Shown one piece after another: positions 8,680 through 22,526 of a stretch of DNA of 64,000 nucleotides (position 1 is its first letter; each line of letters opens with the position of its first letter). The notes below the pieces were generated by a model. It made no database searches, was not told the origin of the DNA, and saw only the letters and a list, made by a program, of their open reading frames with translations. Made by a program: the position numbers and the translations under genes. Source of the stretch: an uncultured Anaerolineae bacterium (lineage in GTDB: Bacteria; Chloroflexota; Anaerolineae; Anaerolineales; Villigracilaceae); the NCBI GenBank assembly GCA_937120535.1, contig CAKZJX010000007.1, positions 1-64,000 on the forward strand, written 5' to 3'.

Positions 8680-8683
8680 TGCT

Positions 8684-9430
8684 CTAGCCCATTATGAAGT
8701 CTACTGGTTCTTGGTGTTCTAAGATCATGGATTCTTCTAGTTCTTTGATCTCTGCTTCTGCTTCTTGAAGTATACCTTCTGCATCAATTGTCACGCCGCC
8801 AACCAACTGAACGTTTCGTAGCTTACGAAGGTTGTTACCCCACTGTCTCTTGATTAGAGCAGTGGCATATTTTTTGAGAAAAGGGTCATTCCACACTCGT
8901 GGGAATTCGTCGGGGTCGAGAACTCTTGTTGCTTCAACAACAAAAATCTGACCTTCACGAACCGTATTCCAGTCAATATCAATGAACAGTCTGTCCATAT
9001 GACGATTAAAGCGAATGTGCTTCGTTTTTCCAGAAACAACGTTCTTCAATGTCTCACGATAAGACATCGCCATGCTGTATGTTAAAAGACCATCGCCTTT
9101 TAGTGCAAAAGGATATGTGCTAGCCATCAATTGCCATTCAATAGAAAATTGGCTTGATCCTTGATATGACGTTTCCAAGACTCGCTGAACACCTACGAAT
9201 GAGTCATCAATCGGGAAGTATTTGTCTTGAATGACTTGAGCTGTTGCTTCGACTGGCACATACATTTGGATGCTGCCGTCATGGTGATTTCGACCAAAAT
9301 ATTCCAAGGCAGCATCGACCAAATCCTCGACCTGTTGATTGTCTACGTTGATTTGAATAACGGGCGCACCCAAACGGCGCAGGCAATACGCTTTGAACTC
9401 TTTTCTTGTTTCTGGTTTAGATGCAGACAT
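8684..9430 (-). CDS. 13: Neck protein gp13
   Basis: 248 residues. The start region (TRKEFKAYCLRRLGAPVIQI) and VDAALEYFGRNHHDGS are characteristic of gp13. The central RFNRHMDRLFIDIDW and C-terminal LIKRQWGNNLRKL also fit. gp13 binds the portal after packaging and prepares the head for tail joining. It is the first gene of the neck operon, with a perfect late promoter 25 bases upstream of the ATG. Confidence 0.9.
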   Translation of the reverse strand: MSASKPETRKEFKAYCLRRLGAPVIQINVDNQQVEDLVDAALEYFGRNHHDGSIQMYVPVEATAQVIQDKYFPIDDSFVGVQRVLETSYQGSSQFSIEWQLMASTYPFALKGDGLLTYSMAMSYRETLKNVVSGKTKHIRFNRHMDRLFIDIDWNTVREGQIFVVEATRVLDPDEFPRVWNDPFLKKYATALIKRQWGNNLRKLRNVQLVGGVTIDAEGILQEAEAEIKELEESMILEHQEPVDFIMG

Positions 9431-9454
9431 GTTTATCCACCTAGTTGTTTTTAT

Positions 9455-9462
9455 TATTTATA
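9455..9462 (-). promoter_or_regulatory. 13: T4-type late promoter for the neck operon
   Basis: Minus-strand TATAAATA, 25 bases before the gene 13 ATG and directly downstream of a strong terminator. Confidence 0.85.
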
Positions 9463-9463
9463 G

Positions 9464-9493
9464 GAAAGAAAGCCCCTCGAGGGGCTTTCTTTC
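9464..9493. terminator. Perfect 30-base palindrome, bidirectional terminator
   Basis: GAAAGAAAGCCCC, a TCGA centre and GGGGCTTTCTTTC. It ends the early ligase operon on the minus strand immediately before the late promoter of gene 13. The stop codon of the upstream gene lies inside its arm. Confidence 0.85.
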
Positions 9494-9809
9494 AAATTTC
9501 TGGAGGTTCTTCCGAATAATGAGGCTTTGAAGGCCTGGGCTCAAATGCACTAAGCAACTCTTTATATTTCTCAAGGTATTGTTCTTGTTCATACCCAAAC
9601 CTACGGTTCAGGAACAACACCAGATCAGCTTGATTCTTCAAAAACTCTACGGGCGTTTTGCTTTTCATAATGCGGCGGATGTAATAGTTCACACCCAACT
9701 TAGAGTTCTTCTGTTTGAACAGATTGAAAGCATCCATAACCTTAGGGATACAACCAAATTGTTTGCAATGCGCTACTGTCTCGCACTCGTCACAAATTTT
9801 CTCGCTCAT
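9492..9809 (-). CDS. Hypothetical Cys-rich protein downstream of DNA ligase
   Basis: 105 residues, not recognised. The N-terminus has CDEC, then HCKQFGC, which could bind one zinc ion. The rest is helical and charged, and the end is proline-rich (RPSKPHYSEEPPEI). It overlaps the ligase stop by four bases, so it is translated after ligase. The context suggests an accessory role in DNA metabolism, but nothing in the sequence proves it. Confidence 0.6.
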   Translation of the reverse strand: MSEKICDECETVAHCKQFGCIPKVMDAFNLFKQKNSKLGVNYYIRRIMKSKTPVEFLKNQADLVLFLNRRFGYEQEQYLEKYKELLSAFEPRPSKPHYSEEPPEI

Positions 9810-11164
9810 TTCTCACCCCTCATCGCTTCATCAAAGATTTGAATAATCTTCTCAAGACTATCCGCTTCGCTCTTATCAAGACGTTCCTCAACAAACCGTG
9901 GGAGGAACAGACGCCGAGGACCATTGTCATTGGGCATCAAAGAGTTTGCCCGAACGGTGATGATTTTCTTGTCAATCCATTCGTCCATCTCTTTGGTGAT
10001 ACGCTCACGGTCCGCATCGCTGAAGCCCGATACATTAGTCTGCACCAAACCATCGGAGCTCTCACAAATCAACGAACCAAACCATTTTTCATTTTTGCCG
10101 TTGCCTGGATTGAAGCCTCGGACAATCAGATCAACCTCGGCTTCCACCTTCATCTTGATTTGATCCTTGGACGTACCATCTGCCCAAATTGCTTCGGGGT
10201 TCTTGATGACCGTGCCTTCATATCCCATGGCGGTCATTTGAACATAATGTTCAAATGCTTCTTTCAAGGAGAAGACGATCTTGGTGGGGATGGGAAGGAA
10301 GTATTGGCCTTTCAGCTTCTCAACCTTTTTATAACGCTCACGATACGGAACTTCATATTTGCCGCCTGCTACTGCATTCTCAACAGGCACCTTGTCCCAG
10401 ATGAAGTAGAACGGTTTCTGGTTCTTCTCAAACGAACCACCCTTGAGAACACTGTTCAAAACACCGTTGCCGATCTCACGAGGCAAAATCTTCCAACCAT
10501 CCGGATGTTTTTCTGCCACAAGAAGTTCGCCATGGTAACAATATCCTACATCGGCTACCTTCAAGAATTCATCAATGAACGCTTGGAACTCAACATTGGC
10601 GAACGTTGTGCCGTTACGACTTGTGATCTTGACTGAGCGATCAGCATAAACGAACACGTTGGCGAACATGCCGTCTGCTTTCTCTTGGGAGAAGATTCCG
10701 TCTTTCCAATTGAACTTATCAATGTTGCTACCTTTCTGCAAGGAGCAGCGCATGTAAGGATATTCGGGAATCGTACCAGGGAAAACTCGATTGATTAAAC
10801 CCACATTGATACCACAACGTAGGTCACCTTTCAGGAGATTTGCTAGAACTTTTGCCTCTTGTTCTAGCAGTGAAGACATGAGCGATGCGACCTCATCTCG
10901 GGCAGCATTACCTGTAATTGCACGGCTTGTTAGACGATCCAGTGTTGCTTCGACTGAGGGCCAAGCATCGTTCAAATTCTTAACACCGAAATTCACCACC
11001 TCGGGAACCTTCTTGATGCCGTAGACATACTCTGGGCTGTAGGTTCGATTCAGCAGGCGAACAAAGTTCGGATACTTCTCGCCAAACTCTTTCAGCTTAG
11101 CTTCCTTGAACAAACGAGAACCGTCGCTGTTCAAAATTTCAATAAGGGTTGCAAATGTGGTCAT
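9806..11164 (-). CDS. 30: ATP-dependent DNA ligase (T4 gp30 type)
   Basis: 452 residues, close to T4 gp30 (487). It has an N-terminal helical domain (about residues 1-140, with LLKGDLRCGINVGLINRVFP) and a nucleotidyltransferase core with motif I in SQEKADGMF (the Lys is adenylated). Motif III (CYHGELLV), motif IV (GYEGTVIKNP) and motif V (KMKVEAEVD) follow, then a C-terminal OB domain. It seals nicks during replication and repair. Its ATG overlaps the stop of a broken upstream reading frame. All catalytic motifs are intact. Confidence 0.93.
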   Translation of the reverse strand: MTTFATLIEILNSDGSRLFKEAKLKEFGEKYPNFVRLLNRTYSPEYVYGIKKVPEVVNFGVKNLNDAWPSVEATLDRLTSRAITGNAARDEVASLMSSLLEQEAKVLANLLKGDLRCGINVGLINRVFPGTIPEYPYMRCSLQKGSNIDKFNWKDGIFSQEKADGMFANVFVYADRSVKITSRNGTTFANVEFQAFIDEFLKVADVGYCYHGELLVAEKHPDGWKILPREIGNGVLNSVLKGGSFEKNQKPFYFIWDKVPVENAVAGGKYEVPYRERYKKVEKLKGQYFLPIPTKIVFSLKEAFEHYVQMTAMGYEGTVIKNPEAIWADGTSKDQIKMKVEAEVDLIVRGFNPGNGKNEKWFGSLICESSDGLVQTNVSGFSDADRERITKEMDEWIDKKIITVRANSLMPNDNGPRRLFLPRFVEERLDKSEADSLEKIIQIFDEAMRGEK

Positions 11165-11448
11165 TAAAACTCCAGTGCTTCAAACTCTTCTTGGGTAATT
11201 CCGGAATATGTGTACTCGGTACTATTTGGTCCGTAGGACTCGGTAATTCGCCATTTCACTTTACCATCAGATCCTTTTTGACCGATTCAGCGCCGATAAC
11301 CAGCGTCTGACATACCAGCAAACAAATCTTCGCTTTCGTAATTATCAGCCGCCCAATTATCCATACGGACAATCTTCGGCTTAATTTAGTTGTCTTTAAC
11401 TGCTACTTTTGAGTAGAATTTTTCAAAAGCGATGTTTTGTTTGTTCAT
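11164..11448 (-). pseudogene. Small early gene interrupted by two in-frame stops
   Basis: A 94-codon frame begins at an ATG with a good AGGAA ribosome site and runs without shift to a TAA that overlaps the ligase start. It is broken by TAA at codon 21 (11386-11388) and TGA at codon 54 (11287-11289). Between the stops the sequence looks like real protein (for example VRMDNWAADNYESEDLFAG and KVKWRITESYGP), and the TAATG coupling to ligase is kept. A single C-to-T or G-to-A change would explain each stop. Function unknown. Confidence 0.7.
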
Positions 11449-11478
11449 GATGTTCCTTCCTTGTTGATTCAATTTTAA

Positions 11479-11503
11479 GACAAGACGCACGAGGCGTCTT
11501 GTC
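11479..11503. terminator. Hairpin between two small early genes
   Basis: A perfect 10-bp stem (GACAAGACGC / GCGTCTTGTC) with a five-base loop lies three bases past the stop of the minus-strand gene upstream. The T tract is weak, so it may be a moderate terminator. Confidence 0.6.
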
Positions 11504-11505
11504 CT

Positions 11506-11749
11506 TTATTCAACAATCTTGCAGTAGTGACACTGAAAAGAGAAGTAGTCTTTTTCGTAGGTCGTGTCTGAGCCATGATATCCATATTGAACCCACCAGA
11601 GTTCTTCTGTTTTCACAATGTTTCGAATGACAACAACGTCGCCTTTGGAACCATAGGCAGCAGTCCAACGAGAACCAACCTCAAGATCTTCCTTTTTTGA
11701 AAATGTGTCGGACAACCGCTTTATGCCCATTAATGATTTCAGTTTCCAT
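11506..11749 (-). pseudogene. Small early gene with a one-base insertion in an A run
   Basis: The real start is probably the ATG at 11749, seven bases after AAGGAG. From there the frame reads METEIINGHKAVVRHIFKK and then stops early. Removing one base from the run of six A (11693-11698 on the plus strand as T) joins it to a 67-residue frame that continues EDLEVGSRWTAAYG to VQYGYHGS and ends CHYCKIVE. The intact downstream frame has an ATG at 11730 but no ribosome site. Compact beta-rich protein of unknown function. Confidence 0.6.
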
Positions 11750-11775
11750 GATATGCTCCTTGTCCCTATGCCTCA

Positions 11776-11804
11776 ATTATAGCATAGAACAAGGAGTTGT
11801 CTAG
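11776..11804 (-). promoter_or_regulatory. Early sigma70-like promoter
   Basis: CTAGAC, 17 bp, TATAAT on the minus strand, upstream of the small gene at 11749 and just after the gp41 stop. Confidence 0.75.
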
Positions 11805-11808
11805 AACT

Positions 11809-13236
11809 TTATTCTACCTTGATGCCTGAGAACCTTGGCTTGTTGCCTACACCCAAAGCTGGCTTCTTGAACTTGATTTCCCCTGTATCTTGGTCAATCT
11901 CCTCATCTTTACGCTTAGGACTTCCGTTTGAAACGGGTCGTGTCTTTGTCATCTGAACCTCAGACTCTGCATCAAACAACCTCATCTTCGAGCGATCAAT
12001 ACCTACAACGAAACGGAGCTTGCTTGCCATGTCTGAAAAGCGATTCTTCAACTGTTTGAACATGACAACATTCTGCTCGTCTAGTTCTTCAGTACGAATC
12101 ATAGCCAAAAGGATATCGGCGGTCATGGCTAGGCCATGGCTGTCTGAAATTTCCTTCAGACCAACATCTGTCGTATCCGTGCCCTCACGATTCAACTGAG
12201 TAGCTGAAACAATAGGCAGATTGTACTCAATAGCCAGACCACGTAGTTCTTCACAAATGGCCTTGACATATTGATAAGAGTTCACCATGCCTGCCTTGAA
12301 TCGGCTTGAAGAACAGATGTTGATGTAGTCAACGTAGATGATGTCTGGCACGAAGTCTTTCTTCAACTTCAGCTCATTGATGAGCGCCCTGAATTGCGTA
12401 ACACCCGCACTAGCGGTGGGGTACTCTTTGACAATCAAGCGACCCTTACAGCCATCCAATGCCTTGTTCAACCGACGTCTGTATTCTTGCAATGACAGAT
12501 TAGGTAGATCTTGAATCCTCATGTTCAAGATGTTAGCGTCAATGCGCTCCGAGATACGTTCTTCTGCCATTTCCATGGTGATATAAAGGACGTTCTTGTC
12601 TGCTAAGAGGTTCCGTGCCGCACAATGACAAAGGAACAGAGATTTACCAGCACCAGTTGATGCTGATACAACTGCAAGAGTTTTCCGAGGCAAACCTCCG
12701 TTTGTGATTTCGTTCAGTGCTTCAATGTCAAAAGGAATCTTGTATTCATTGATTTGATGCAACATTTTGTAGCGTTGCTCAATCATGGTCATGAAGTCGT
12801 GACCGATGTTGGTATCAAATGACACCGATAGAGCATTCTTCAAAATGTCCGGGATCTGGCCTACGTCCGCCTTATCGTCCTCTATCATTGCAGCGGCGTC
12901 TACAATGGCATTGAACAGTGCCTTGTCCTTGCAGAACTTTTCCGTATGCTCAACAAGCCAATCAATCGAGGGCGCTTTGCTACGCTTTGTCAGTCTATTG
13001 ACAAGATCAACCGCAGTCTCATAGTCTGATTGTTTTAGTCCTTTCGTGTCCTTGATTTCAATACGTAGCTCATCTTGAGTAGGTGCCTTGTTGTACTTGG
13101 AAACGAACTCTGAGATTTTTGTGAAGACGATAGAATGGGCGTTCTCGCCAAAATACTCATCCTTCAAAAAAGGGAGAACCCTTCGCATATACTCATCATT
13201 GTGCAACAGGTTCTCCAAGATTACTTCTTCTATCAT
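11809..13236 (-). CDS. 41: Replicative DNA helicase gp41 (DnaB-like)
   Basis: 475 residues, as in T4 gp41. An N-terminal helical domain (about 1-150) is followed by a RecA-type motor: Walker A SASTGAGKS (about 190-198), TMEMAEERISERIDANIL, Walker B IIYVDYINIC and a C-terminal Arg-finger region. As a hexamer it unwinds DNA ahead of gp43 and works with primase gp61, which is not in this window. The C-terminal tail is basic and probably flexible. Downstream of uvsX as in T4, with a start following GGAGAA. Confidence 0.93.
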   Translation of the reverse strand: MIEEVILENLLHNDEYMRRVLPFLKDEYFGENAHSIVFTKISEFVSKYNKAPTQDELRIEIKDTKGLKQSDYETAVDLVNRLTKRSKAPSIDWLVEHTEKFCKDKALFNAIVDAAAMIEDDKADVGQIPDILKNALSVSFDTNIGHDFMTMIEQRYKMLHQINEYKIPFDIEALNEITNGGLPRKTLAVVSASTGAGKSLFLCHCAARNLLADKNVLYITMEMAEERISERIDANILNMRIQDLPNLSLQEYRRRLNKALDGCKGRLIVKEYPTASAGVTQFRALINELKLKKDFVPDIIYVDYINICSSSRFKAGMVNSYQYVKAICEELRGLAIEYNLPIVSATQLNREGTDTTDVGLKEISDSHGLAMTADILLAMIRTEELDEQNVVMFKQLKNRFSDMASKLRFVVGIDRSKMRLFDAESEVQMTKTRPVSNGSPKRKDEEIDQDTGEIKFKKPALGVGNKPRFSGIKVE

Positions 13237-13259
13237 TTATTCTCCTAGACCAAAGGACA

Positions 13260-13288
13260 ATTATATCAGGAATCATCTTGTTTGTCAA
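13260..13288 (-). promoter_or_regulatory. 41: Early sigma70-like promoter for gene 41
   Basis: Perfect TTGACA and TATAAT with a 17-bp spacer, inside the end of the preceding gene and 24 bases before the gp41 ATG. Confidence 0.85.
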
Positions 13289-13607
13289 ATTCTTTCAGAC
13301 GTTCCATAGCTAGTAAATAATTGATGAGATTACCCACGATAACGTTCAGTTCATCCGACTCCACGTTCTGTTTGTCCTTGTTCACTGCGGTGTAGTCAAT
13401 CTCAAGCTGCGAACCTTTCACCTCGACACTACGGAGAATGATGATATGGTCCTTGAAGTCACCATCCTGAAGCACAACGGCTCCGATGATTTTCTTCTCG
13501 TCCATCATGCGAGCTTCTTCATCGCTCTCCACAGGGATCGAATAAAAAGAAGGCACAACCTTCCTCAAATCTTGGATAATTGCATAGACATCATTTTTCG
13601 TCTGCAT
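13266..13607 (-). CDS. Hypothetical protein between uvsX and gene 41
   Basis: About 113 residues. I choose the ATG at 13607 (MQTKNDVYAIIQDLRKV) because GGAG lies six bases upstream; an ATG 18 bases earlier is possible. The fold looks alpha/beta with a long C-terminal helix (VIVGNLINYLLAMERLKEF). In T4 gene 40 occupies this position; the position matches but I cannot confirm similarity. It overlaps the end of the uvsX C-terminal gene by 17 bases and carries the gene 41 promoter in its last codons. Confidence 0.55.
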   Translation of the reverse strand: MQTKNDVYAIIQDLRKVVPSFYSIPVESDEEARMMDEKKIIGAVVLQDGDFKDHIIILRSVEVKGSQLEIDYTAVNKDKQNVESDELNVIVGNLINYLLAMERLKEFDKQDDS

Positions 13608-14127
13608 CGGCTTCTCCATGTTCATCAGACATGATGGATTCGTTCATCACCAATTGGTATTTCTTACAGATGAAGTCCTTGAACTTCTGGTTCTTCAGGA
13701 TGTCTTCCCAAAATTCTGCCGTGTTTGTTTCCTTGGCACGATACTTGCCTTCAACCAATTCGCCCGTATCAGGATCAACCTTCTGATACCAACCCATACT
13801 TGGCTTAGTAACGAAGCCTCCCTCAAGGGCAAGGTCTAGCAAACCCGACCAACGGGTAATGCCCCCGTCAAACATAACAGTCAAAGGAATCTTGGACTTC
13901 TCTTTGACGCGACGAGACTTCTCGATGTTGATGGTGAAAGTATAACCTGCAACGTCCGTGCCATCTTTCTCTTGAGAACGACCAATGATCCAGATGTCGT
14001 TTGCAGAATAGTATCCACCGGTATTATGAGTTATGAGACCATTTTCAAGGATGTAGTGTTCGACCTCATCAACTGAAATATCAAAGACGGGAACGTTACC
14101 GATTGATTTCTTGCTTACCAATTTCAT
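13591..14127 (-). CDS. uvsX: Split intein C-half fused to UvsX C-terminal half
   Basis: 178 residues. Residues 1-35 are the C-terminal fragment of a split intein: PVFDISVDEVEHYILENG then LITHN, with the block G penultimate His and final Asn. Thr36 is the first extein residue. Residues 36-178 are the UvsX C-terminal half: TGGYYSANDIWIIGRSQEKD, NIEKSRRVKEKSKIPLTVMF, DGGITRWSGLLDLALE and an acidic tail for gp32/gp41 contacts. Trans-splicing with the partner encoded at 15178-16101 would rebuild a 353-residue recombinase (T4 UvsX has 391). The junction is GG/TG in the DNA-binding L2 loop region of RecA-fold proteins. Confidence 0.92.
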   Translation of the reverse strand: MKLVSKKSIGNVPVFDISVDEVEHYILENGLITHNTGGYYSANDIWIIGRSQEKDGTDVAGYTFTINIEKSRRVKEKSKIPLTVMFDGGITRWSGLLDLALEGGFVTKPSMGWYQKVDPDTGELVEGKYRAKETNTAEFWEDILKNQKFKDFICKKYQLVMNESIMSDEHGEADADEK

Positions 14128-14195
14128 TCATTATTTCCTTTGCAATTTGCTTAACATAATTTGTGGGGTCTTTAGCATGCTTTTCAAATTGCACT

Positions 14196-15119
14196 CTAAA
14201 AAACCTTATACCCTAATCCTTCCATGAATTCTTGTTTCACTGCGTCTCTACGCTTTGCTTCTTCCGATCTATGCCAAAATTCGCTATCATATTCTATAAC
14301 AATTTTCAGAGCCGTGTCTACAAAGTCATATTTTACATACCCCAATCCTTTGATGAATTTACCAAATTCTCTTTCACCGTAATGAGGTTTAACGAATTGA
14401 ATTTCCTCACACAAGCTATCAAAAAATCTAACCGATGATTTTGAGCAATATGCATAACGAGAGGACATAAATTCGGCATACTCGTCTTCAGTTTTACCTT
14501 GACTAATCCAATACTCTACACACCATGGTTGATGTTTTCTTCGCTCTTCGGCTGAATACTTTTGAGCATATTTGTTGCCATTGCTTGTTTGAAGTGCTGT
14601 TACCTTTTCAGCGGCTTCTTCTTCTGAAAGACCACGAGCAATCCAGTAATTCTTATTCCAGCGTGATACGGATGAACCATTTGATTTGACTTTTTGATGA
14701 AATTTGATTGCGTTCTGAGATTGGGTCTCTTTTACCTTTACAATGGCCTCATCTTTAGTGTAGCCTCGCTTAACCCAATATTCCACACACCTCGGAGAAT
14801 TTTCTTTTTGAATTTCACTTGTGAAGCGTCTTGCTTCATCTTCAGAATAACCCCGGACCAACCAATATGTTTTGCTTCGTCTAGACCCGCCCAGTTTTCC
14901 ACTTGGATTAACTATTGACTTTATTATTTTGTAAATTTCCACCATTCCCCTTAGTTCGTTTCCGTGCGCAAGCAATTTTGAAACGATAATGGGGTTTTTG
15001 AGGTTTAGGTCTTTATCAAAAGCAGAATATATCATCAGCATTTCTTCATCTGATGGCTGTTTGTTAAGGTCAAGTGAAGGGAAATTTTTCTTGTACCATT
15101 CTATCGTTTGTTTTTTCAT
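14196..15119 (-). CDS. Free-standing homing endonuclease (EDxHD/Vsr-like), 3' end frameshifted
   Basis: 307 residues lying between the two uvsX halves. The middle has four repeats of a YWxxRGyxxDEA type (KTYWLVRGYSEDEA, EYWVKRGYTKDEA, NYWIARGLSEEEA, EYWISQGKTEDE), probable DNA-binding helices. The C-terminal catalytic part has KYDFVDTALKIVIEYDSEFWH and RRDAVKQEF, matching the Vsr-like EDxHD nucleases found in fractured split-intein genes. The frame stops after GLGYKVF at a run of six T (14198-14203). With five T it would continue RVQFEKHAKDPTNYVKQIAK to 14096, overlapping the downstream gene. So the last 34 residues are lost; activity is uncertain. Confidence 0.85.
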   Translation of the reverse strand: MKKQTIEWYKKNFPSLDLNKQPSDEEMLMIYSAFDKDLNLKNPIIVSKLLAHGNELRGMVEIYKIIKSIVNPSGKLGGSRRSKTYWLVRGYSEDEARRFTSEIQKENSPRCVEYWVKRGYTKDEAIVKVKETQSQNAIKFHQKVKSNGSSVSRWNKNYWIARGLSEEEAAEKVTALQTSNGNKYAQKYSAEERRKHQPWCVEYWISQGKTEDEYAEFMSSRYAYCSKSSVRFFDSLCEEIQFVKPHYGEREFGKFIKGLGYVKYDFVDTALKIVIEYDSEFWHRSEEAKRRDAVKQEFMEGLGYKVF

Positions 15120-15177
15120 ATGTGCCTCCTGAATGTACTTTTATATAAAAACTGTTTTTTCAGGAGGCACTGGCCTG

Positions 15178-16101
15178 TTAGTGACGGATAAACTCCATAT
15201 CGTAAGTGAGGTCCTTTGCCATCACCCACTTCTCCGAGCCGTCACCCATTCTAACAAGAAACGGATGTTTGTCAGAACAACGAACCGTGTAGCCATCCTC
15301 AAACACCAACTCAAAACATTCAGGGGTTCCTTCCTCTAGGGTTTCGGGATTCCAAGTTGCCGTCACTTTCCTTGGACCAGAACGTGTTTGAACTAGCTCG
15401 CCTTCCTTGACGTCTTGAATGTTTCGGGTCGTGCCGTCAGCCATTCGGATTTTAGTATTTTCCGTCAGGCAACCGCCAGAGACGATCGCCTTGGGGAACA
15501 TACCAATCTCTTGATAGACATGGTTAATCGCAATCATAGGAATGTCCTTGATTGTCAGGTGGGGTGTAACCATTCGGAACAATGATTTCAACTGCTTAGC
15601 GCGTGACATATCAGCCACGGACTTTTCGTTCAGCGCATCCTCAACCTCTTTCTTAGATGCAAGGTTGCCAATAGAGTCAATCAAGAAGATGACCTTGTCG
15701 CCACGTTGAATTTGCTCCAACTGGCTCATAATGTCAAACTTCAATTGCTCAATGTCGGTGATGGGCGTATGAAGGACACGAGTCGTATCAATGCCGAACG
15801 CTTGGAAGTATGACTTGGGAGAACCGAATTCTGAATCATAAAACATCAGAACGGCATCTGGATACTTCTTCATGTAGGCGGCAGCCATCACCAAGGAGAT
15901 GCTGGACTTAAAATGCTTTGAAGGGCCAGCCACCTGGAGTAGCCCAGGTTGCAATCCCCCATCAATAGAGCCGCTAAGAGCAATATTAAGAGCAGGAATC
16001 GGTGTGGGTATTTCATCTTTTTTGTTGAAGAATGTGGAATTCTCTAGGACAGAGGTTTCTTTGATTTTTGAATTTTTCTTAAGCTTTTCTAATAGACTCA
16101 T
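15178..16101 (-). CDS. uvsX: UvsX N-terminal half fused to split intein N-half
   Basis: 307 residues from the ATG preceded by AAAGGTGAG. Residues 1-210 are RecA-type UvsX: Walker A AGPSKHFKSS, Walker B VIFLIDSIGN, and MIAINHVYQEIGMFPK up to AIVSGG. Cys211 starts the intein: block A CLTENTKIRMADGTTRNIQD and block B YTVRCSDKHPF with the catalytic His. The protein ends after 97 intein residues. It should assemble with the intein C-half and splice in trans. Both exteins keep the conserved residues, so a working recombinase for DNA strand exchange is expected only after splicing. Confidence 0.93.
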   Translation of the reverse strand: MSLLEKLKKNSKIKETSVLENSTFFNKKDEIPTPIPALNIALSGSIDGGLQPGLLQVAGPSKHFKSSISLVMAAAYMKKYPDAVLMFYDSEFGSPKSYFQAFGIDTTRVLHTPITDIEQLKFDIMSQLEQIQRGDKVIFLIDSIGNLASKKEVEDALNEKSVADMSRAKQLKSLFRMVTPHLTIKDIPMIAINHVYQEIGMFPKAIVSGGCLTENTKIRMADGTTRNIQDVKEGELVQTRSGPRKVTATWNPETLEEGTPECFELVFEDGYTVRCSDKHPFLVRMGDGSEKWVMAKDLTYDMEFIRH

Positions 16102-16106
16102 ATATC

Positions 16107-16523
16107 TCACCTTTTCAAATGTTCAATGGCATATCCATTCGGTGTATTATAAACGATCTCGGAAATATTGTGAAGCATTATCAGACGAAGACAAGCTTCA
16201 CAGGGGCGGCACATTGCGGGGTTGCCGTTCATGTCCATCCTGCCAATGAAAAGAGTAGAGCCCTTGGGCACTTCTCTAAGATTGCCTATGCAATCAATTT
16301 CTGCATGAACAAAGCTTCTACGGCGTTTGTATTCTTCACGGAACTGGTTATAGTGATATTGTAAGGGATGGCTCTTTTTCTTGTTGTATCCTGTTGCAAT
16401 GATGCCTTTTCGATAAGCTAGAATCGCACCAATCTTGTATGTCGGAACGTCACTCAATTGACCAAGATGTGATGCTTTTGCAAGCATACCTTCATACCAT
16501 TTACTCGTATTGTTAGAGATCAT
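16107..16523 (-). CDS. Deoxycytidylate/cytidine deaminase-like protein
   Basis: 138 residues with the zinc deaminase signature: SFVHAEIDCIGN (His ligand and catalytic Glu) and MCRPCEACL (PCxxC Cys pair). It probably turns dCMP into dUMP for dTTP supply, which fits the ribonucleotide reductase and dUTPase genes in the window. The family also includes free cytidine and blasticidin-type deaminases, and the substrate cannot be read from the sequence. It starts with ATGA overlap and lies directly upstream of uvsX. Confidence 0.8.
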   Translation of the reverse strand: MISNNTSKWYEGMLAKASHLGQLSDVPTYKIGAILAYRKGIIATGYNKKKSHPLQYHYNQFREEYKRRRSFVHAEIDCIGNLREVPKGSTLFIGRMDMNGNPAMCRPCEACLRLIMLHNISEIVYNTPNGYAIEHLKR

Positions 16524-16906
16524 TTTTCAATGTACGGTCGCCACTCTTGAGCGAAGGAACAATTCACTGCACCCTTGAACAGGTGCGCAATCTGACCATC
16601 AGTGTAACCCGCAAGACCACAACCGATACGAGTCACGAAGAAACGGAGTTCGGGATGGTCTTTTGTGAATTGGACGAATTCTTCAATGTAAGGACGAATG
16701 GCGCTAAGACGCATGGTCTTGATGTTTTCATCCTTTGTAGGGATGGCGTATGTCTTGCCAGAAAGGCCAACACCTTTACCCCATTTAGCACCAAAGTTCA
16801 AAGCTGCTGCAGCCGCACCCGCGCCATGAATTCCCGCAAGGTTACTGCCGAAAACGAAAATGGAATTGTCGCTAGGGAGCGTGCCGTCAGAGTGAAAAAT
16901 CGTCAT
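16520..16906 (-). CDS. A1S_2505-type phage non-structural protein
   Basis: 128 residues with a strongly conserved phage signature: NSIFVFGSNLAGIHGAGAAA, GKTYAIPTKDENIKTM, FFVTRIGCGLAGYTDGQIA. This matches the A1S_2505 family seen in many phages and prophages. The alternating strand-helix pattern and the Gly-rich first loop recall a macrodomain-like nucleotide-binding fold, but no reaction is established. Its stop overlaps the deaminase start. Confidence 0.75.
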   Translation of the reverse strand: MTIFHSDGTLPSDNSIFVFGSNLAGIHGAGAAAAALNFGAKWGKGVGLSGKTYAIPTKDENIKTMRLSAIRPYIEEFVQFTKDHPELRFFVTRIGCGLAGYTDGQIAHLFKGAVNCSFAQEWRPYIEK

Positions 16907-16930
16907 AATGAAAAATTTCTTGGTTAAGAA

Positions 16931-17278
16931 TCAACGGTGATAGTGGTGATGAAAGTGGTAATGGGGGGGTCTCTGAAGGTGATGATGATTGCGGTAAGGA
17001 TCGTAAGGATTACCTTGGGGATACTGTCCGCAATTATAACACGGAACAACAACCACCGAGGGAACATGTGCCGGGTAAACAACCACTGGCGGTGCATACA
17101 CCACACCAGGATGAACATAGACACCACGGACAACGGGATGTCCGTTTGTGGCTCCGATAGTGATGTGACCATTAGGACCACCAATCGAAACGCCTATGGA
17201 AGTCGTCCATTCTTGAGCAGCTGCACCGAACGATGTCACAACCATTGCTGCTGCTACGATGATTTTCTTGATGTTCAT
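16931..17278 (-). CDS. Secreted His-rich small protein
   Basis: 115 residues from the ATG that follows AGGAGA (an upstream in-frame ATG lacks a ribosome site). It opens with a classic signal peptide (MNIKKIIVAAAMVVTSFGAAA, cut before QEW). The mature part is Val/Pro/Tyr-rich with one CYNC pair and ends in a very His-rich tail (NHHHLQRPPHYHFHHHYHR), a likely metal-binding segment. The look is that of a bacterial periplasmic protein carried by the phage. No family recognised. Confidence 0.65.
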   Translation of the reverse strand: MNIKKIIVAAAMVVTSFGAAAQEWTTSIGVSIGGPNGHITIGATNGHPVVRGVYVHPGVVYAPPVVVYPAHVPSVVVVPCYNCGQYPQGNPYDPYRNHHHLQRPPHYHFHHHYHR

Positions 17279-17305
17279 TGTCCGATCTCCTGTTCTGATG
17301 TTGTA

Positions 17306-17336
17306 ATTATATAACAAAGAATCAGACCATGTCTAC
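17306..17336 (-). promoter_or_regulatory. Early promoter for the secreted His-rich protein
   Basis: GTAGAC -35 with TATATAAT about 17 bp downstream (two overlapping choices of -10), ahead of the ATG at 17278. Confidence 0.65.
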
Positions 17337-17512
17337 AGTTTGTAGAACAAACATCCCGAGTATTTTCTTTCAGAATTCTCTTCAACCTCGAACCACCATT
17401 CCTTCAAGGCGTACTTTCTTTGTTTACACCGTTTCATAAGGTCTGTTAGCTGGCGAGGGGTTAAGTTCTCGAACTTCCGTTTGTAGATTTTGTCGCCTTG
17501 CTTTAAGTTCAT
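17333..17512 (-). CDS. Small hypothetical protein
   Basis: 59 residues from the second ATG, which is seven bases after AGGAGA; the first ATG is too close to it. Basic, single helix plus a short strand (FENLTPRQLTDLMKRCKQRK, WWFEVEENS). No family recognised. It follows the broken gene at 17523-18039. Confidence 0.5.
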   Translation of the reverse strand: MNLKQGDKIYKRKFENLTPRQLTDLMKRCKQRKYALKEWWFEVEENSERKYSGCLFYKL

Positions 17513-17522
17513 AATCATTCTC

Positions 17523-18039
17523 CTAAACCTCGTCCTGCAATTCCATCACAAACCCACGGAAAGCCTCGGGACTAAGAGATGCCACAAATGCCTTCAGGTT
17601 CATTCGTTCAAAGTAGCGACGATATTTCGCCATCAGTTCACCCGGCTCTTTGCCTTCAACGTCAAATACTCCGAGAAGTTATCGCCGTTGAAGTTCTTAC
17701 GGCTTGCTTGAATTCAGGGAATGCATTGAAGGCACGCTCTAGATGTTCCCGACAATTAACAGGCTTCTTGGGTGTTCCGGGCTGAAGATTGTACTTCACC
17801 TTGTAGTATTCTAGGATATCTTGGTACATTGCATGAGTACGATCTCGGCGTTGTTCTTCGCTATAAAACTCAACATGTTCCCAATAACGCATGAAACGCC
17901 AAGTCAAACTGTAATTGCCCTTGAATATCCGACTAACATAATCGTACTCATATGTTGAACCGGAGGTTCTGTTTCAACCTTTGTTGCGCTGGCGTTTCAG
18001 CTCTTTAAGGATTTCCTTTTTAGGCGTATAACGAAACAT
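17523..18039 (-). pseudogene. Early gene broken by one TGA and two one-base deletions
   Basis: The ATG at 18039 begins MFRYTPKKEILKELKRQRNK, then hits TGA at codon 22 (17974-17976). The same frame goes on TSGSTYEYDYVSRIFKGNYS, RFMRYWEHVEFYSEEQRRD, EYYKVKYNLQPGTPKKPVNC and AFPEFKQAV. Then two shifts are needed: GTAAGAAC would read as KNFNGDNFSE with one more A, and GGAGTA would read on as VFDVEGKEPGELMAKYRRYF with one more G. It ends ...FRGFVMELQDEV, TAG. The rebuilt protein would have about 172 residues. Only a piece at 17662-17907 remains as a long open frame. Confidence 0.7.
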
Positions 18040-18080
18040 TTTAGGCCTTGATGAATTGGACGTTTTTGATGTATGACTAC

Positions 18081-18108
18081 ATTATAACAGAAAAGGGCTA
18101 GATGCCTA
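18081..18108 (-). promoter_or_regulatory. Probable early promoter downstream of the RNA ligase terminator
   Basis: TATAAT with a poor -35 (TAGGCA, 16 bp) that lies inside the terminator hairpin. A TTGACA further upstream is too far for normal spacing. Confidence 0.5.
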
Positions 18109-18114
18109 GCCCCT
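18091..18114 (-). terminator. Terminator of the DRB0094-type RNA ligase gene
   Basis: Stem GGGCTAG / CTAGCCC, loop GCAT, then TTTTCT on the minus strand, 15 bases after the ligase stop. Confidence 0.75.
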
Positions 18115-18129
18115 TGTCAAAGAATTTCC

Positions 18130-19194
18130 TTATTCTTTGTTCTTCAGGAGCCACCGGTTCGAAATGGTCTTGAAGCTGATGCTCGGATCGCTAATGCACT
18201 TCCACACCAAACCTTCGCGTTCGCTATCATTCAGAAGGCTCTTACCTTCCGCTTCTTGCAGGATACCCGCAATGTCTTCAGCGGTGATAGCCTTCACCGA
18301 AACCAAGGGTACATGTTCCAGACCCAACTGTTGGCAAAGTTTGATTCGCTGTTCGCTGTTCAAGTACGCACCAGTCTTGGTATCGTAGATGTCAAAGACG
18401 TAGAACTTCTGACCTCGAATCTTGTACTGATTGCCTTGAATGCCCTCACCAACCAATTCACCCTGGATGGCCAAACCTTGCAAGTTTGCCGCGACCATAC
18501 GATTCTCAACGTCGTTCTGAATGGCTGCTTTCCAGAAGCTGTTGTTTTCATCACGCTTCAGATCAAGGTTGCGGCTGCAGACATGGAAATCGCCTTCAAG
18601 GTCAAGGTACATTGTGCAGCTAGAGCCATCCAACTTCTCAGTGATCTCAAAGACAAGGTTTTGAGCCTTCCATTCCTCGAATTCCTTCTTCAAGTTCTGA
18701 ATTCTTTCCTGGTCGGTCTTAGGAACGGCCGTTGGAAAGTTGCCACGAACTTGTCCTGCCAGTTGTGCAGGAACAGGGGCTTCCCACTTCTGGATTCCTA
18801 GAGCTTCCGTTACGTCATCGCCTTCCTTGACAATAATCATAGAACCCACACCATCTTCCCGGAAGTATCCGGTTATGAATTTGGTTCCATTTACTTCATC
18901 TACAGGAAGCAAAAGACCTTGAGAAAGTTGACCACGGAGCTTAACAGTCCGAAGGCGTTCACCCTTTACACCATTATATTCTTTAGGTTCATTACCTTTA
19001 GATAGGAAAGGAGCAAGCTCTGTCGGAACCCAGCTATCAATTTCAAGATAAACACCCACATCGCCGGGTTTGAACTCACCCTTCTTCACCACAACCGTCC
19101 ATCCGCCAACAACTGCGCACTCGATTGCGTCTGCACCCTCAATAGGACGAATCTCATCAATTTTACGAATGCTTGCCAGCTTACGCATCTTCAT
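18130..19194 (-). CDS. RNA ligase, DRB0094 (Rnl5-like) family
   Basis: About 354 residues. The N-terminal OB-like domain reads LASIRKIDEIRPIEGADAIE and WTVVVKKGEFKPGDVGVYLE. The catalytic core has motif I VFEITEKLDGSSCT with the adenylated Lys, then CSRNLDLKRD, motif IIIa GELVGEGIQGN, VFDIYD, and EREGLVWK (motif IV). This domain order is that of the Deinococcus-type RNA ligase, which seals 3'-OH ends in nicked RNA, best when the 3' side is RNA. The ATG at 19194 or 19188 is preferred to an upstream TTG. It is one of four ligase-superfamily genes in the window. Confidence 0.88.
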   Translation of the reverse strand: MKMRKLASIRKIDEIRPIEGADAIECAVVGGWTVVVKKGEFKPGDVGVYLEIDSWVPTELAPFLSKGNEPKEYNGVKGERLRTVKLRGQLSQGLLLPVDEVNGTKFITGYFREDGVGSMIIVKEGDDVTEALGIQKWEAPVPAQLAGQVRGNFPTAVPKTDQERIQNLKKEFEEWKAQNLVFEITEKLDGSSCTMYLDLEGDFHVCSRNLDLKRDENNSFWKAAIQNDVENRMVAANLQGLAIQGELVGEGIQGNQYKIRGQKFYVFDIYDTKTGAYLNSEQRIKLCQQLGLEHVPLVSVKAITAEDIAGILQEAEGKSLLNDSEREGLVWKCISDPSISFKTISNRWLLKNKE

Positions 19195-20390: not shown

Positions 20391-22526
20391 ATGAATCAAG
20401 ACGTTAAAGTTTACCTAAACAACCCGAACCTGAAAGCGGCGGGTGTCGAAATCAATTTCGAGCCGTGGCAGGTTCAAGAGTTGGTGAAGTGTTACAGCGA
20501 TCCAATTTACTTCATTGAAAACTATGCCAAGATTGTGCATATTGACAAAGGTCTTGTGCCGTTCAAGCTCTACTATTATCAAAAAGACATTGTTCGCTTG
20601 ACAATGGAGAACCGTTACGTTCTCTTGAAGTTGCCTAGACAATCTGGTAAGTCTACCACAACCGCAGCCTGTATCCTGCACTACATTCTGTTCCAAGAAC
20701 ATAAGACCGTTGCCATCCTTGCAAACAAGGCAGCGACCGCTCGTGAAATTTTGAGCCGTATCCAAATGATGTACGAACATCTGCCTTTGTGGATGCAGGT
20801 CGGCGTCACATCTTGGAACAAAGGTTCATTCAGCCTAGGCAACGGATGTAAGGTCATTGCTGCTTCAACATCATCAAGCGCGATTCGTGGTTGCATACAC
20901 GGTAGTATCATATTAAATGTCAAGAAAATATCTTCAGGTGAGGAGTTTGACATTGAAATAGAAGGTCTCTTTGAGATGTTGGATAAATCCTCACCCGATG
21001 TTTCTTTGAATAAGGATTACCTGTTAAAAACGCCTTCAGGTTGGAGTAACTTCTCTTCAGTGATTCGTTATCCGAGTGAATCCCATATCAGGTTATTTTT
21101 GAGTCACGGTAAAGAGTTGAGATTAAGTAAAAACCATCCTCTATTTACCAGTCTGGGTTGGATTAACGCTGAAGATTTGACAGTAGGGATGGAAGTCATC
21201 ACTGCAACTGGAAAAGCCGAGATTTTGGAATGCGAGGAGATTGAAGAACGGGGGTTTATGTACGATCCCGCATATGTTGAGACGGGCAATGAGGGTAGGG
21301 TTCAATTTGCAAAGAACAAGAAAACAGATGAGATTGTCAGTCTTAATCTTTTAGAGAAGCCATCAGAAGATTGGGAAATAATTGAAGGAAATGTTGGTGA
21401 CCAGTGTTATTTTGCCAATGATGTAATATCTTCGAACACAAGCATAAGCTGGTTGGTTCTTGATGAATTCGCCTTCGTCCCGCCAAACCAAGCGACAGAG
21501 TTCTTCGAGTCCGTGTATCCTACCATTTCATCTGGTAAGGAGTCAAAGATATCGGTGTTCTCTACGCCTAAGGGTATGAACCACTTCTACAAGATGTGGG
21601 TCGAGGCAACTACGGGTCGTTCTGAATTCGTTCCGTTTGAAATCAGCTGGTATGACGTTCCTGGCCGTGATGAGGCATGGAAAGAGAAGACTATTGCTAA
21701 CATTGGTCAAGAATCGTGGGAACAAGAATTCGAAGCGCAGTTCCTAGGATCAGCGAGCACGTTGCTATCACCTGCAACATTGAGACGATTGGTGCACCGT
21801 GAACCTGTGGCTCAAAGCGGTTCATTGAAGGTGTATGAACACCCAAAGCCAGATCATGTCTACTTCCTAAGTGTAGATTGTTCTCGAGGTGCGGGCATTG
21901 ACTACTCTGTTATCCAAGTCACGGACATTACAGAGTATCCGTTCAAACAAGTGGCAATGTTCCGTGATAACAAGACAAACCACTATCTCTTGCCTCGAAT
22001 CATTGTGGAGATTGCTAAGAAATACAACAACGGTTATGTCCTTGTGGAAATCAATGACATTGGTGAGGCGGTAGCTGATGCAATTTACTTTGATGAGGAA
22101 TATGAAAACCTATTGACCACAGGTGAATCGAAAGGCAAAATTGTTCTCGGATCTTGGAAGAACGGACGTAATGGTGTTCGCACCACAAAGTCTACAAAGC
22201 GCGAAGGTTGTTCTATCATCAAGGCATTGATTGAGTCGAATAAATATGAATTGCGAGATTGGACAACGATTCAAGAATTCAGCACATTCATCTCAAAGAA
22301 CAATTCATACGAAGCTGATGAGATGTGCCACGATGATACGGTCATGGCGCTTGTTGTTTTTGCTTGGGCAACGGGACAAGAGTTTTTCAAGGAAATCATG
22401 CAGAAAGATTTCCGTAAGACGTTCATTGAAGAAAGCTCTGAGGATTTGATGGAAGAATTGAGCCCTATTGGGTTCTTTGATGGGATGGATGATGTTCAAT
22501 CAGGCGAATGGGAGAAGGTGGAATGA
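20391..22526 (+). CDS. 17: Terminase large subunit gp17, carrying an intein
   Basis: 711 residues including a 182-residue intein. The N-terminal ATPase has YQKDIVRLTMENRYVLLKLP, Walker A RQSGKST, AILANKAATAREILSRIQMM and Walker B WLVLDEFAFV. The C-terminal RNase H-type nuclease has FLSVDCSRGAGIDYSVIQV, VLVEINDIGEAVADAI and DEMCHDDTVMALVVFAW with the acidic residues expected. After removal of the intein the protein has 529 residues. It drives DNA into the prohead and cuts headful ends. The intein sits right before Walker B, so unspliced protein should be inactive. Confidence 0.95.
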   Translation: MNQDVKVYLNNPNLKAAGVEINFEPWQVQELVKCYSDPIYFIENYAKIVHIDKGLVPFKLYYYQKDIVRLTMENRYVLLKLPRQSGKSTTTAACILHYILFQEHKTVAILANKAATAREILSRIQMMYEHLPLWMQVGVTSWNKGSFSLGNGCKVIAASTSSSAIRGCIHGSIILNVKKISSGEEFDIEIEGLFEMLDKSSPDVSLNKDYLLKTPSGWSNFSSVIRYPSESHIRLFLSHGKELRLSKNHPLFTSLGWINAEDLTVGMEVITATGKAEILECEEIEERGFMYDPAYVETGNEGRVQFAKNKKTDEIVSLNLLEKPSEDWEIIEGNVGDQCYFANDVISSNTSISWLVLDEFAFVPPNQATEFFESVYPTISSGKESKISVFSTPKGMNHFYKMWVEATTGRSEFVPFEISWYDVPGRDEAWKEKTIANIGQESWEQEFEAQFLGSASTLLSPATLRRLVHREPVAQSGSLKVYEHPKPDHVYFLSVDCSRGAGIDYSVIQVTDITEYPFKQVAMFRDNKTNHYLLPRIIVEIAKKYNNGYVLVEINDIGEAVADAIYFDEEYENLLTTGESKGKIVLGSWKNGRNGVRTTKSTKREGCSIIKALIESNKYELRDWTTIQEFSTFISKNNSYEADEMCHDDTVMALVVFAWATGQEFFKEIMQKDFRKTFIEESSEDLMEELSPIGFFDGMDDVQSGEWEKVE
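20892..21437 (+). other. Mini-intein in the terminase (residues 168-349)
   Basis: Begins Cys168 (RG/CIHGSIILNVKK) and ends Asn349 (ANDVISSN) before Thr350. Block A is GEEFDIEIEG-like, block B is ELRLSKNHPLF with its His, and block F is in GNVGDQCYFANDVI. The C-terminal pair is Ser-Asn instead of the usual His-Asn. No LAGLIDADG or HNH endonuclease is visible, so it is a mini-intein. The flanks rejoin as AIRG and TSISWLVLDEF, matching the T4 gp17 line AIRGNSFAMIYIDE. Confidence 0.9.

What the first reader, a model, noticed from the sequence alone, without database searches (positions are those of the whole stretch)
13591..16101. uvsX is a fractured gene: split intein halves with a free-standing EDxHD-type endonuclease between them
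Seen: a UvsX N-half ends at GG and runs into a Cys-led intein N-fragment (97 residues). Then comes a separate endonuclease gene on the same strand, then a 35-residue intein C-fragment ending HN followed by Thr and the UvsX C-half. Known: fractured genes with split inteins and Vsr-like homing endonucleases were described from environmental phage data (Dassa and co-workers, 2009); gp41, NrdJ and IMPDH hosts are the known examples I recall. Inference: this is a natural trans-splicing recombinase, inserted at the DNA-binding loop so that unspliced UvsX should be inactive. A fast split intein of this class would also be of practical interest.
Basis: partly seen in the sequence, partly recalled or inferred. 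Interest (0 to 1): 0.93.

Follow-up and report, generated by a model that had tools for sequence, protein, structure and literature searches.

The report
Fractured phage recombinase with split intein
In this T4-like phage the gene for the DNA-repair protein UvsX is cut in two and each half carries half of a self-splicing protein, so the enzyme must be stitched together after translation; the same arrangement turns up in many T4-like phages, and close relatives show stages in which such a broken gene gains, loses and outlives its selfish endonuclease.

Summary
Confirmed. On the minus strand, UvsX residues 1-210 end ...SGG, followed by a 97-residue Cys-led intein N-fragment. A separate endonuclease ORF comes next, then a 35-residue intein C-fragment (...HN), Thr+1 and the UvsX C-half. 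The joined exteins (353 aa) align with no gap at the junction to an intact relative (L013), an exact empty site. No second uvsX was found in the held assembly.

Corrections. The endonuclease is Vsr-like, but its reading frame breaks near its 3' end; an intact homologue sits in the same uvsX fracture in IMG/VR contig L237. A 12-bp perfect hairpin covers its ribosome site, as in T4 I-TevI. The host gene is not new to databases: 25 phage records (19 phages) carry this split intein in uvsX.

Wider result. Among 70 non-identical uvsX-intein alleles examined, 52 are split with an endonuclease or its remains (GIY-YIG, HNH, Vsr), 15 are split without a complete one and 3 are continuous. In one lineage these states share near-identical DNA, and the continuous form carries the former ribosome site and start codon of the C-half as a translated scar: a split intein apparently re-fused by deletion.

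Trans-splicing is inferred, not shown. New member of the known 'fractured gene' kind.

The parts
15472..16101 (-). UvsX N-extein, residues 1-210, ends ...AIVSGG
   Evidence: PF00154 40.9 bits over cut-off; phrog_8337 and phrog_97; 88.6% identical to intact UvsX in L013
15181..15471 (-). Intein N-fragment (IntN), 97 aa starting Cys, same ORF as the N-extein
   Evidence: TIGR01445 full length above cut-off; 45-60% identical to the 15 other IntN aligned (the window row there lacks the Cys because I gave the range one codon short)
15122..15170 (-). Hairpin: arms 15122-15133 and 15159-15170, 12 bp perfect, covering the Shine-Dalgarno AGGAGG (15125-15130) of the endonuclease
   Evidence: the repeat finder; RNA fold -22.1 kcal/mol, z -4.39, 0 of 200 shuffles as good
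15138..15147 (-). AT-rich TATATAAAAG in the hairpin loop, possible degenerate T4-type late promoter (2 mismatches to TATAAATA)
   Evidence: sequence; best match 2 mismatches; relatives have exact TATAAATA in 22 of 39 nonredundant upstream regions, the window's own copy (L009) being one of the 39
14196..15119 (-). Free-standing Vsr-like endonuclease ORF as read (307 aa), four YW..-G repeat modules (by eye) plus a truncated nuclease domain
   Evidence: 37% identity over a 316-column alignment to intact L237 HEN; partial MTES_1575 and DUF559 hits below cut-off; profile A5 hits 3hrl and Vsr
14096..14200 (-). Out-of-frame continuation of the endonuclease, overlapping the start of IntC
   Evidence: corresponds in position to the C-terminus of L237's intact homologue
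14134..14140 (-). Shine-Dalgarno-like AAGGAAA before the IntC start
   Evidence: sequence
14023..14127 (-). Intein C-fragment (IntC), 35 aa, own ATG, ends THN
   Evidence: TIGR01443 full length above cut-off; 51-63% identical to the 15 other IntC aligned
13594..14022 (-). UvsX C-extein, 143 aa starting Thr (+1)
   Evidence: T4_UVSX_C 69.4 bits over cut-off; phrog_18112 'recombinase' matches IntC plus C-extein together
11809..13236 (-). Neighbour: gp41-like DnaB helicase, same synteny as T4-like phages (uvsX-40-41)
   Evidence: PF03796; synteny

Best explanation
This is a natural split intein in the uvsX recombinase gene of a T4-like phage, an example of the 'fractured gene' arrangement. The two ORFs are translated separately. 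IntN and IntC associate, splice in trans and leave a 353-residue UvsX with the native GG|TG sequence restored (inferred). The element moves, or moved, by homing: the endonuclease gene between the halves would cut intein-less uvsX alleles and the whole segment would be copied in (inferred from the family). Its expression is restrained by a hairpin that hides its ribosome site on read-through uvsX transcripts, in the manner of T4 I-TevI (structure predicted; control inferred). In this phage the endonuclease frame is broken near its end and the loop promoter is weak, so the element looks like an early stage of endonuclease decay, while the splicing halves keep the catalytic residues because UvsX production depends on them (inference).
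For: Both intein halves match curated intein termini above cut-off. The joined exteins align through the junction without a gap to intact L013 UvsX, and tblastn places UvsN and UvsC of L013 directly next to each other. In 103 of 106 IntN-bearing loci examined the UvsX N-extein ends within 6 nt of the intein Cys; all 70 non-identical alleles keep Cys1, 66 end HN and 4 SN, and +1 is Thr in 67 and Ser in 3. No other T4-type UvsX in the assembly. Intact endonuclease homologue in the same fracture, L237. Hairpin z -4.39. TATAAATA exact in 22 of 39 upstream regions against a shuffle mean of 1.06, maximum 5 in 200; within one mismatch 30 of 39 against a mean of 11.5, maximum 19. The hairpin plus late promoter mechanism is described for I-TevI, I-TevII, I-TevIII, segB and Aeh1 mobE (PMC2988022, passages read).
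Against: Splicing was not and cannot be tested here. The window's own loop has no exact late promoter (2 mismatches). The hairpin is not universal in relatives: folding z was -2 or lower in 17 of 39 upstream regions, and for three of these (L005, L007, L194) my script took a doubtful start. The frameshift could be a shared assembly error: the window and L011 differ elsewhere by one T. IntN and IntC are both net negative, so no charge complementarity supports tight association.
Confidence: 0.88

Rival explanations
1. UvsX is a two-polypeptide enzyme that works unspliced: the halves assemble non-covalently, as for split NrdA of phage Aeh1, and the intein remnants are passengers.
For: Split phage enzymes that work without splicing are described (Aeh1 NrdA; gp43A/B of phage 25; PMC2988022, passages read).
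Against: Cys1 and the terminal Asn are kept in 70 of 70 non-identical alleles; the intein ends exactly at the empty site; continuous alleles with the same intein sequence over the columns compared exist and would have to splice to give UvsX. Passenger remnants would be expected to decay (inference).
Confidence: 0.05
2. The break is an intron or an assembly artefact rather than a protein-level element.
For: Endonucleases between gene halves are also found in group I introns of phages (PMC2988022, passages read).
Against: In 13000-17000 Rfam gave only two lncRNA hits far below their gathering scores; the intein halves are coding and end at the junction; the same sequence is in two other contigs and the arrangement in 25 phage records.
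Confidence: 0.01
3. The endonuclease is intact: ribosomes shift +1 at the T run before the UAG stop and make the full-length enzyme (programmed recoding).
For: The tail in the +1 frame is open and resembles the C-terminus of the L237 homologue; P-site UUU can re-pair after a +1 slip and an SD-like AAGG lies just upstream (sequence; resemblance to RF2 recalled). The same T run is in two other contigs.
Against: The intact homologue L237 has no shift; endonuclease decay is common at this site (15 of 67 non-identical split alleles have no complete endonuclease gene left; broken ORFs in L007, L077 and L194).
Confidence: 0.1
4. The apparent frameshift is a homopolymer consensus error and the endonuclease is simply intact.
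For: The window and L011 differ by a single T at about window 18094, so single-T indels do occur between these assemblies.
Against: The window and both IMG/VR contigs agree at this T run. They may share reads.
Confidence: 0.2

Closest known systems
Fractured genes (Dassa et al. 2009, doi 10.1093/nar/gkp095; paper not held, recalled, and seen here only in reference lists)
   Same: Conserved DNA-metabolism gene broken in two by a split intein with a free-standing, often Vsr-related, endonuclease gene between the halves (recalled)
   Different: Here the endonuclease frame is broken; whether uvsX is among the enzyme types of that paper could not be checked
Split-intein uvsX of isolated T4-like phages (Salmonella phage pSe_SNUABM_01, Escherichia phage HY03, Yersinia phage TG1, Shewanella phage Thanatos-1, Proteus phage Pm5461 and others)
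   Same: Same host gene, same GG|T site; IntN 49-54% identical, IntC 51-63% in the seven isolates aligned
   Different: Occupant is GIY-YIG by motif in the 15 regions read, not Vsr-like; in those 15 regions the record annotation names the two halves as recombination or repair proteins or hypothetical, and only VmeM-32 notes an intein domain (HintC)
Tenacibaculum phage PTm1 split DNA polymerase with 'VSR endonuclease' (NC_049340) and Vibrio phage VmeM-32 split gp41
   Same: Fractured gene with a Vsr-like endonuclease between its two parts and an intein (annotated in PTm1; IntC seen in VmeM-32)
   Different: Different host genes and inteins
I-TevI / Aeh1 mobE hairpin-controlled homing endonucleases (PMC2988022, passages read)
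   Same: Hairpin hiding the ribosome site; in many relatives a late promoter octamer in or beside the hairpin
   Different: Different nuclease family; the window's late promoter is degenerate
gp41-1 split intein (PDB 6qaz, 6riz)
   Same: Intein by sequence, weak (E 0.12 and 0.55)
   Different: Different gene, low similarity

Membership tests
Fractured gene with split intein | Conserved enzyme gene broken into two ORFs on one strand | tested here: met
Fractured gene with split intein | Complementary intein N and C fragments with splicing residues at the break | tested here: met
   TIGR01445 and TIGR01443 above cut-off; alignments; residues
Fractured gene with split intein | Free-standing endonuclease ORF between the halves | tested here: met
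   ORF 15119-14196; but frame broken near the 3' end
Fractured gene with split intein | Intein-less allele at the identical site | tested here: met
   L013
Fractured gene with split intein | Protein trans-splicing | not testable with these tools
   needs co-expression
Vsr-like homing endonuclease | Vsr/DUF559-type nuclease domain | tested here: met
   profile of 7 domains hits 3hrl E 0.0026 and Vsr 1odg/1vsr/1cw0 E 0.06-0.08; at E up to 1, DUF559 in 5 of 7 and MTES_1575 in 4 of 7 members. Modest scores; window hits alone are below cut-off
Vsr-like homing endonuclease | Complete reading frame | tested here: not met
   frame broken in window; intact in L237
EDxHD (I-Bth0305I) subfamily | Homology to I-Bth0305I | tested here: inconclusive
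   no hit named so in PDB searches; invariant Glu, His, Asp in A5 fit the name only by recall; both AlphaFold models low confidence
T4-type hairpin and late-promoter control | Hairpin sequestering the endonuclease ribosome site | tested here: met
   12-bp perfect stem, z -4.39
T4-type hairpin and late-promoter control | Late promoter TATAAATA placed so late RNA lacks the 5' arm | tested here: inconclusive
   window 2 mismatches; exact in 22 of 39 upstream regions including that of intact L237; an RNA starting after the loop has almost no fold (-0.3 kcal/mol)

The most novel reading that the evidence does not exclude
The uvsX GG|T site of T4-like phages is a long-lived fractured gene whose life cycle can be read in present-day alleles: GIY-YIG, HNH and Vsr endonucleases take turns in the same split intein, many bringing a T4 late promoter and often an RBS hairpin. 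The endonuclease decays (as in this window) or is deleted, leaving bare split inteins. The break can then heal, as in L072 and L173, where deletion fused IntN to IntC and the old ribosome site and start codon of the C-half are now translated as the linker (EEI-M). So splitting of an intein is reversible in nature, and some contiguous mini-inteins are re-fused split inteins.
Probability: 0.65. Interest if true: 0.8.

Novelty: new member of a known kind. Interest (0 to 1): 0.6.

Why it matters
It puts a central phage recombinase among fractured genes and shows that the arrangement occurs in culturable T4-like phages, two of them with E. coli K-12 listed as host (SYGD1 and ELT1), so trans-splicing in a natural infection becomes directly testable. 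The allelic series (endonuclease present, decayed, deleted, re-fused) is a DNA record of how split inteins can un-form as well as form. Sixty-seven non-identical natural split alleles at one site are also a resource for splicing tools, although no speed or efficiency is known.

Tried and rejected
Structure prediction of the window endonuclease and of its intact homologue L237 gave mean pLDDT 48.7 and 43.8 with two-row alignments; unusable, so no fold search was run. phmmer of the endonuclease against PDB gave only MARK kinases, E 0.027 or worse, taken as chance. Rfam found no intron or known RNA in 13000-17000 at useful scores. Folding of the endonuclease-IntC junction was not better than shuffles (z -0.14), so no control structure is claimed there. 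Many intact uvsX loci gave IntC-query hits that begin inside native UvsX sequence upstream of the site; these were ignored. The PADLOC library gave one weak hit to L237 (E 0.0034) and none to the window endonuclease; not pursued. Of 61 genomes (own plus 60 relatives of the bacterial bin) only the own one has this UvsX C-half at E 1e-10, so a stably inherited prophage is not supported; the contig reads as a phage contig in the bin.

Literature. Whether uvsX is among Dassa's enzyme types: the paper was not held. Searches made; several listings were capped (for example 25 of 91, 20 of 28). Of the 9 papers holding both 'uvsX' and 'intein' (all listed) I looked at passages of 5 and not at the other 4. 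Passages were also read of PMC6892783, PMC10448857, PMC3943268, PMC7765530, PMC3653736, PMC12707363, PMC7090010 and PMC8966425. I saw no report of a UvsX split intein in these; this covers open-licence PMC only and only what is named here.

Rows dropped before counts: one search collapsed 30 loci with a sequence identical to another (from IntN to the start of IntC), leaving 67 split alleles, and removed L070 (a different protein); near-identical alleles still count separately. In one search two loci (L184, L229) had no IntC in the contig; L002, L010, L012 and L151 (copies of the window, reversed or cut) were not counted. In one search L222, L224, L227 and L240 were left out of the tree because they end SN. 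Occupant families were called by regular expression and by hand (L005, L007, L009, L077, L194, L237 and the three I-TevI-like ones by hand); Pfam was run on eight endonucleases besides the window's. In one search the start codon taken by the script is doubtful for L004, L005, L007, L077, L161, L194 and L237. The IMG/VR set is the best-scoring 80 of 196 relatives, not a census.
Full report
WHAT IS THERE. On the minus strand of window 13591-16101 lie three ORFs. The first encodes UvsX residues 1-210 (16101-15472) and runs without a stop into a 97-residue intein N-fragment starting Cys (15471-15181). The second is a 307-aa endonuclease ORF (15119-14196). The third starts with a 35-residue intein C-fragment ending THN (14127-14023), followed by Thr and the rest of UvsX, 143 residues in all (14022-13594). 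The intein termini match TIGR01445 and TIGR01443 over their full length and above cut-off; the exteins match RecA and T4_UVSX_C above cut-off. The joined exteins (353 aa) align to the intact UvsX of IMG/VR locus L013 without a gap at the junction, where UvsN ends at 5075 and UvsC starts at 5076.

THE SITE. By alignment with T4 UvsX (3io5) and RecA (3cmu), the junction falls after GG, opposite the RecA stretch MFGNPETTTGG|NALKFY. That this is the end of DNA-binding loop L2 is recalled. Unspliced halves being inactive is an inference.

NO SECOND UVSX. In the 3.1-Mb assembly of 140 contigs that holds the window (contig C7, 128,635 bases), PF00154 finds this gene and one RecA in a 378-aa frame on another contig, and T4_UVSX_C finds only this gene. 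Of 61 genomes searched (own plus 60 relatives of the bacterial bin) only the own one has the UvsX C-half, so this looks like a phage contig in the bin. The phage contig may be incomplete.

THE ENDONUCLEASE. The window ORF is 37% identical over a 316-column alignment to a 339-aa ORF in L237 that sits in the same uvsX fracture of another phage contig. The L237 protein continues past the point where the window ORF stops; in the window a tail of similar length is open in the +1 frame and runs to 14096, inside IntC. In 34 of 52 endonuclease-bearing alleles the endonuclease ORF ends 3-28 nt past the first base of IntC, so an overlapping end is the usual design. The window gene therefore looks broken near its end, at a run of six T that two other contigs share. 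The nuclease domain is Vsr-like: a 7-member profile finds a DUF559-like structure (3hrl, E 0.0026) and E. coli Vsr (E 0.06-0.08), and an annotated VSR endonuclease of Tenacibaculum phage PTm1 matches L237 (E 0.01; in PTm1 it lies between a gene annotated as intein-containing split DNA polymerase and a DNA polymerase gene). I could not show the narrower EDxHD assignment.

CONTROL OF THE ENDONUCLEASE. Between the IntN stop and the endonuclease start lies a perfect 12-bp inverted repeat that covers the Shine-Dalgarno AGGAGG (z -4.39, none of 200 shuffles as stable). I-TevI, I-TevII, I-TevIII and segB of T4, and mobE of Aeh1, have such hairpins with promoters placed so that later RNA escapes them (PMC2988022, passages read). 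In 22 of 39 nonredundant upstream regions (70 nt plus start codon, under 80% identical to each other) of endonucleases in uvsX fractures the late-promoter octamer TATAAATA is present exactly; shuffles give a mean of 1.06 and never more than 5 in 200. The window has only a 2-mismatch version in the loop. This phage does seem to use the octamer: 7 copies against 1.19 expected in 64 kb, four of them 32-44 nt before an ORF start, one of these the 462-aa ORF at 61057 that I take for the major capsid gene (the name rests on my reading of the sequence, not on a search). Hairpins are common, not universal: folding z was -2 or lower in 17 of 39, three of these with a doubtful start.

HOW WIDESPREAD. 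IntN against 50,697 phage records matched 89; of the 60 listed, 25 (six phages counted in both GenBank and RefSeq, so 19 phages) are uvsX of T4-like phages at 49-54% identity; the other 35 listed rows are terminases at 28-37%. I read 15 of those 25 records' regions: all 15 have uvsX-N+IntN, an endonuclease or remnant, then IntC+uvsX-C. In IMG/VR an IntN alignment matched 196 relatives, of which the best 80 were returned. Over all 106 loci with IntN examined, 103 have UvsX ending within 6 nt of the intein Cys; of the other three, L179 is cut by the contig end, L191 shows GG|C with a weaker match and L070 is another protein.

STATES OF THE BREAK. Collapsing identical sequences leaves 67 split alleles and 3 continuous ones. 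Of the 67, 52 have gaps of 500 nt or more with an endonuclease ORF or its remains: by motif and hand 24 HNH, 23 GIY-YIG, 3 with an I-TevI-like DNA-binding domain (Pfam run on one, L204) and 2 Vsr-like (window and L237). Fifteen have gaps of 37-305 nt without a complete endonuclease. On a tree of 66 intein sequences the four endonuclease labels change at least 6 times (fewer if the I-TevI-like group is itself GIY-YIG), and the two Vsr-like occupants are not neighbours: the window groups with L166 (GIY-YIG, SH-aLRT 97). The tree is short (127 columns), a quick search without bootstrap, and 33 of 55 inner branches are unresolved; both rows of that pair are long.

RE-FUSION. Five alleles have the same intein sequence over the tree's columns in three states: L170 (HNH endonuclease), L174 and L175 (no endonuclease, still split), L072 and L173 (continuous). 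L175 and L072 are 99.5% identical over 576 nt of the N side and 97.3% over 405 nt of the C side; L168 (with endonuclease) and L173 (continuous) are 100% identical over 576 nt of the N side but only 74.4% on the C side, so recombination has probably also shuffled the halves. In the alignment, L168, L174, L175 and L072 share the IntN end ...GTAGAATAC; L168, L174 and L175 then have TAA, while in L072 the sequence goes straight to GAGGAAATTATGAAAATT. That string is, in L168, the last bases of the endonuclease gene together with the ribosome site and start codon of IntC. L072 thus reads ...SVEY-EEI-MKIKS... through a former ribosome site and start codon. L175 still holds a piece of the endonuclease 3' end. 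The direction split to continuous is the simpler reading, because the scar is endonuclease-gene sequence; the reverse (insertion between these bases) is not formally excluded. A second continuous allele, L167, also keeps a Met at the IntC start.

INTERPRETATION. The window is one stage of this cycle: a split intein kept working by the need for UvsX, with an endonuclease that has begun to decay. Trans-splicing, homing and late expression are inferred from family knowledge. The homing-cycle model (invasion, fixation, decay, loss) is in print for endonuclease-bearing inteins (PMC8966425, passages read). I saw no report of it for split inteins, or of re-fusion, in the searches named under Tried and rejected, which cover open-licence PMC only and partly capped listings.

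NOVELTY. Fractured genes with split inteins and Vsr-like endonucleases are known (Dassa et al. 2009, recalled; seen here only in reference lists). The window is a new member. The allelic series and re-fusion are, as far as I could search, the new part, and they lie in related loci rather than in the window.

Noticed in passing
window 20391-22526 (+): Large terminase ORF (711 aa) carries an insert that looks like a continuous mini-intein (...SSSAIRG|CIHGS ... NDVISSN|TSISW); Pfam Intein_splicing 18.7 bits, below cut-off.
   Followed up: no
L007 (Vibrio phage vB_VmeM-32) 3585-8962: Two fractured genes in one phage: uvsX with a broken GIY-YIG endonuclease, and gp41 helicase with a Vsr-like endonuclease and a second IntC.
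   Followed up: partly
L250 (Pseudomonas phage PA5oct) 2889-5597: A relative of this Vsr-like endonuclease stands directly upstream of an unsplit UvsX-like gene, as if the family may also target uvsX without an intein.
   Followed up: no
L251 (Vibrio phage Va1) 2200-4485: A match to the Vsr-like nuclease domain lies inside the terminase ORF, possibly a contiguous intein with a Vsr domain.
   Followed up: no
L222, L224, L227, L240: uvsX inteins whose penultimate residue is Ser (SN) instead of His.
   Followed up: no
window about 18094: The only difference between window 8594-19128 and IMG/VR locus L011 is one T.
   Followed up: no
L208 and eight further contigs: A split uvsX intein without endonuclease, gap 114 nt, recurs identically in nine contigs; they may come from repeated sampling of one place.
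   Followed up: no
window 3423, 9455, 61094, 63496: T4-type late promoter octamers 32-44 nt before ORF starts; 7 octamers in the window against 1.19 expected, the other three 9 nt before or without a near ORF start.
   Followed up: partly
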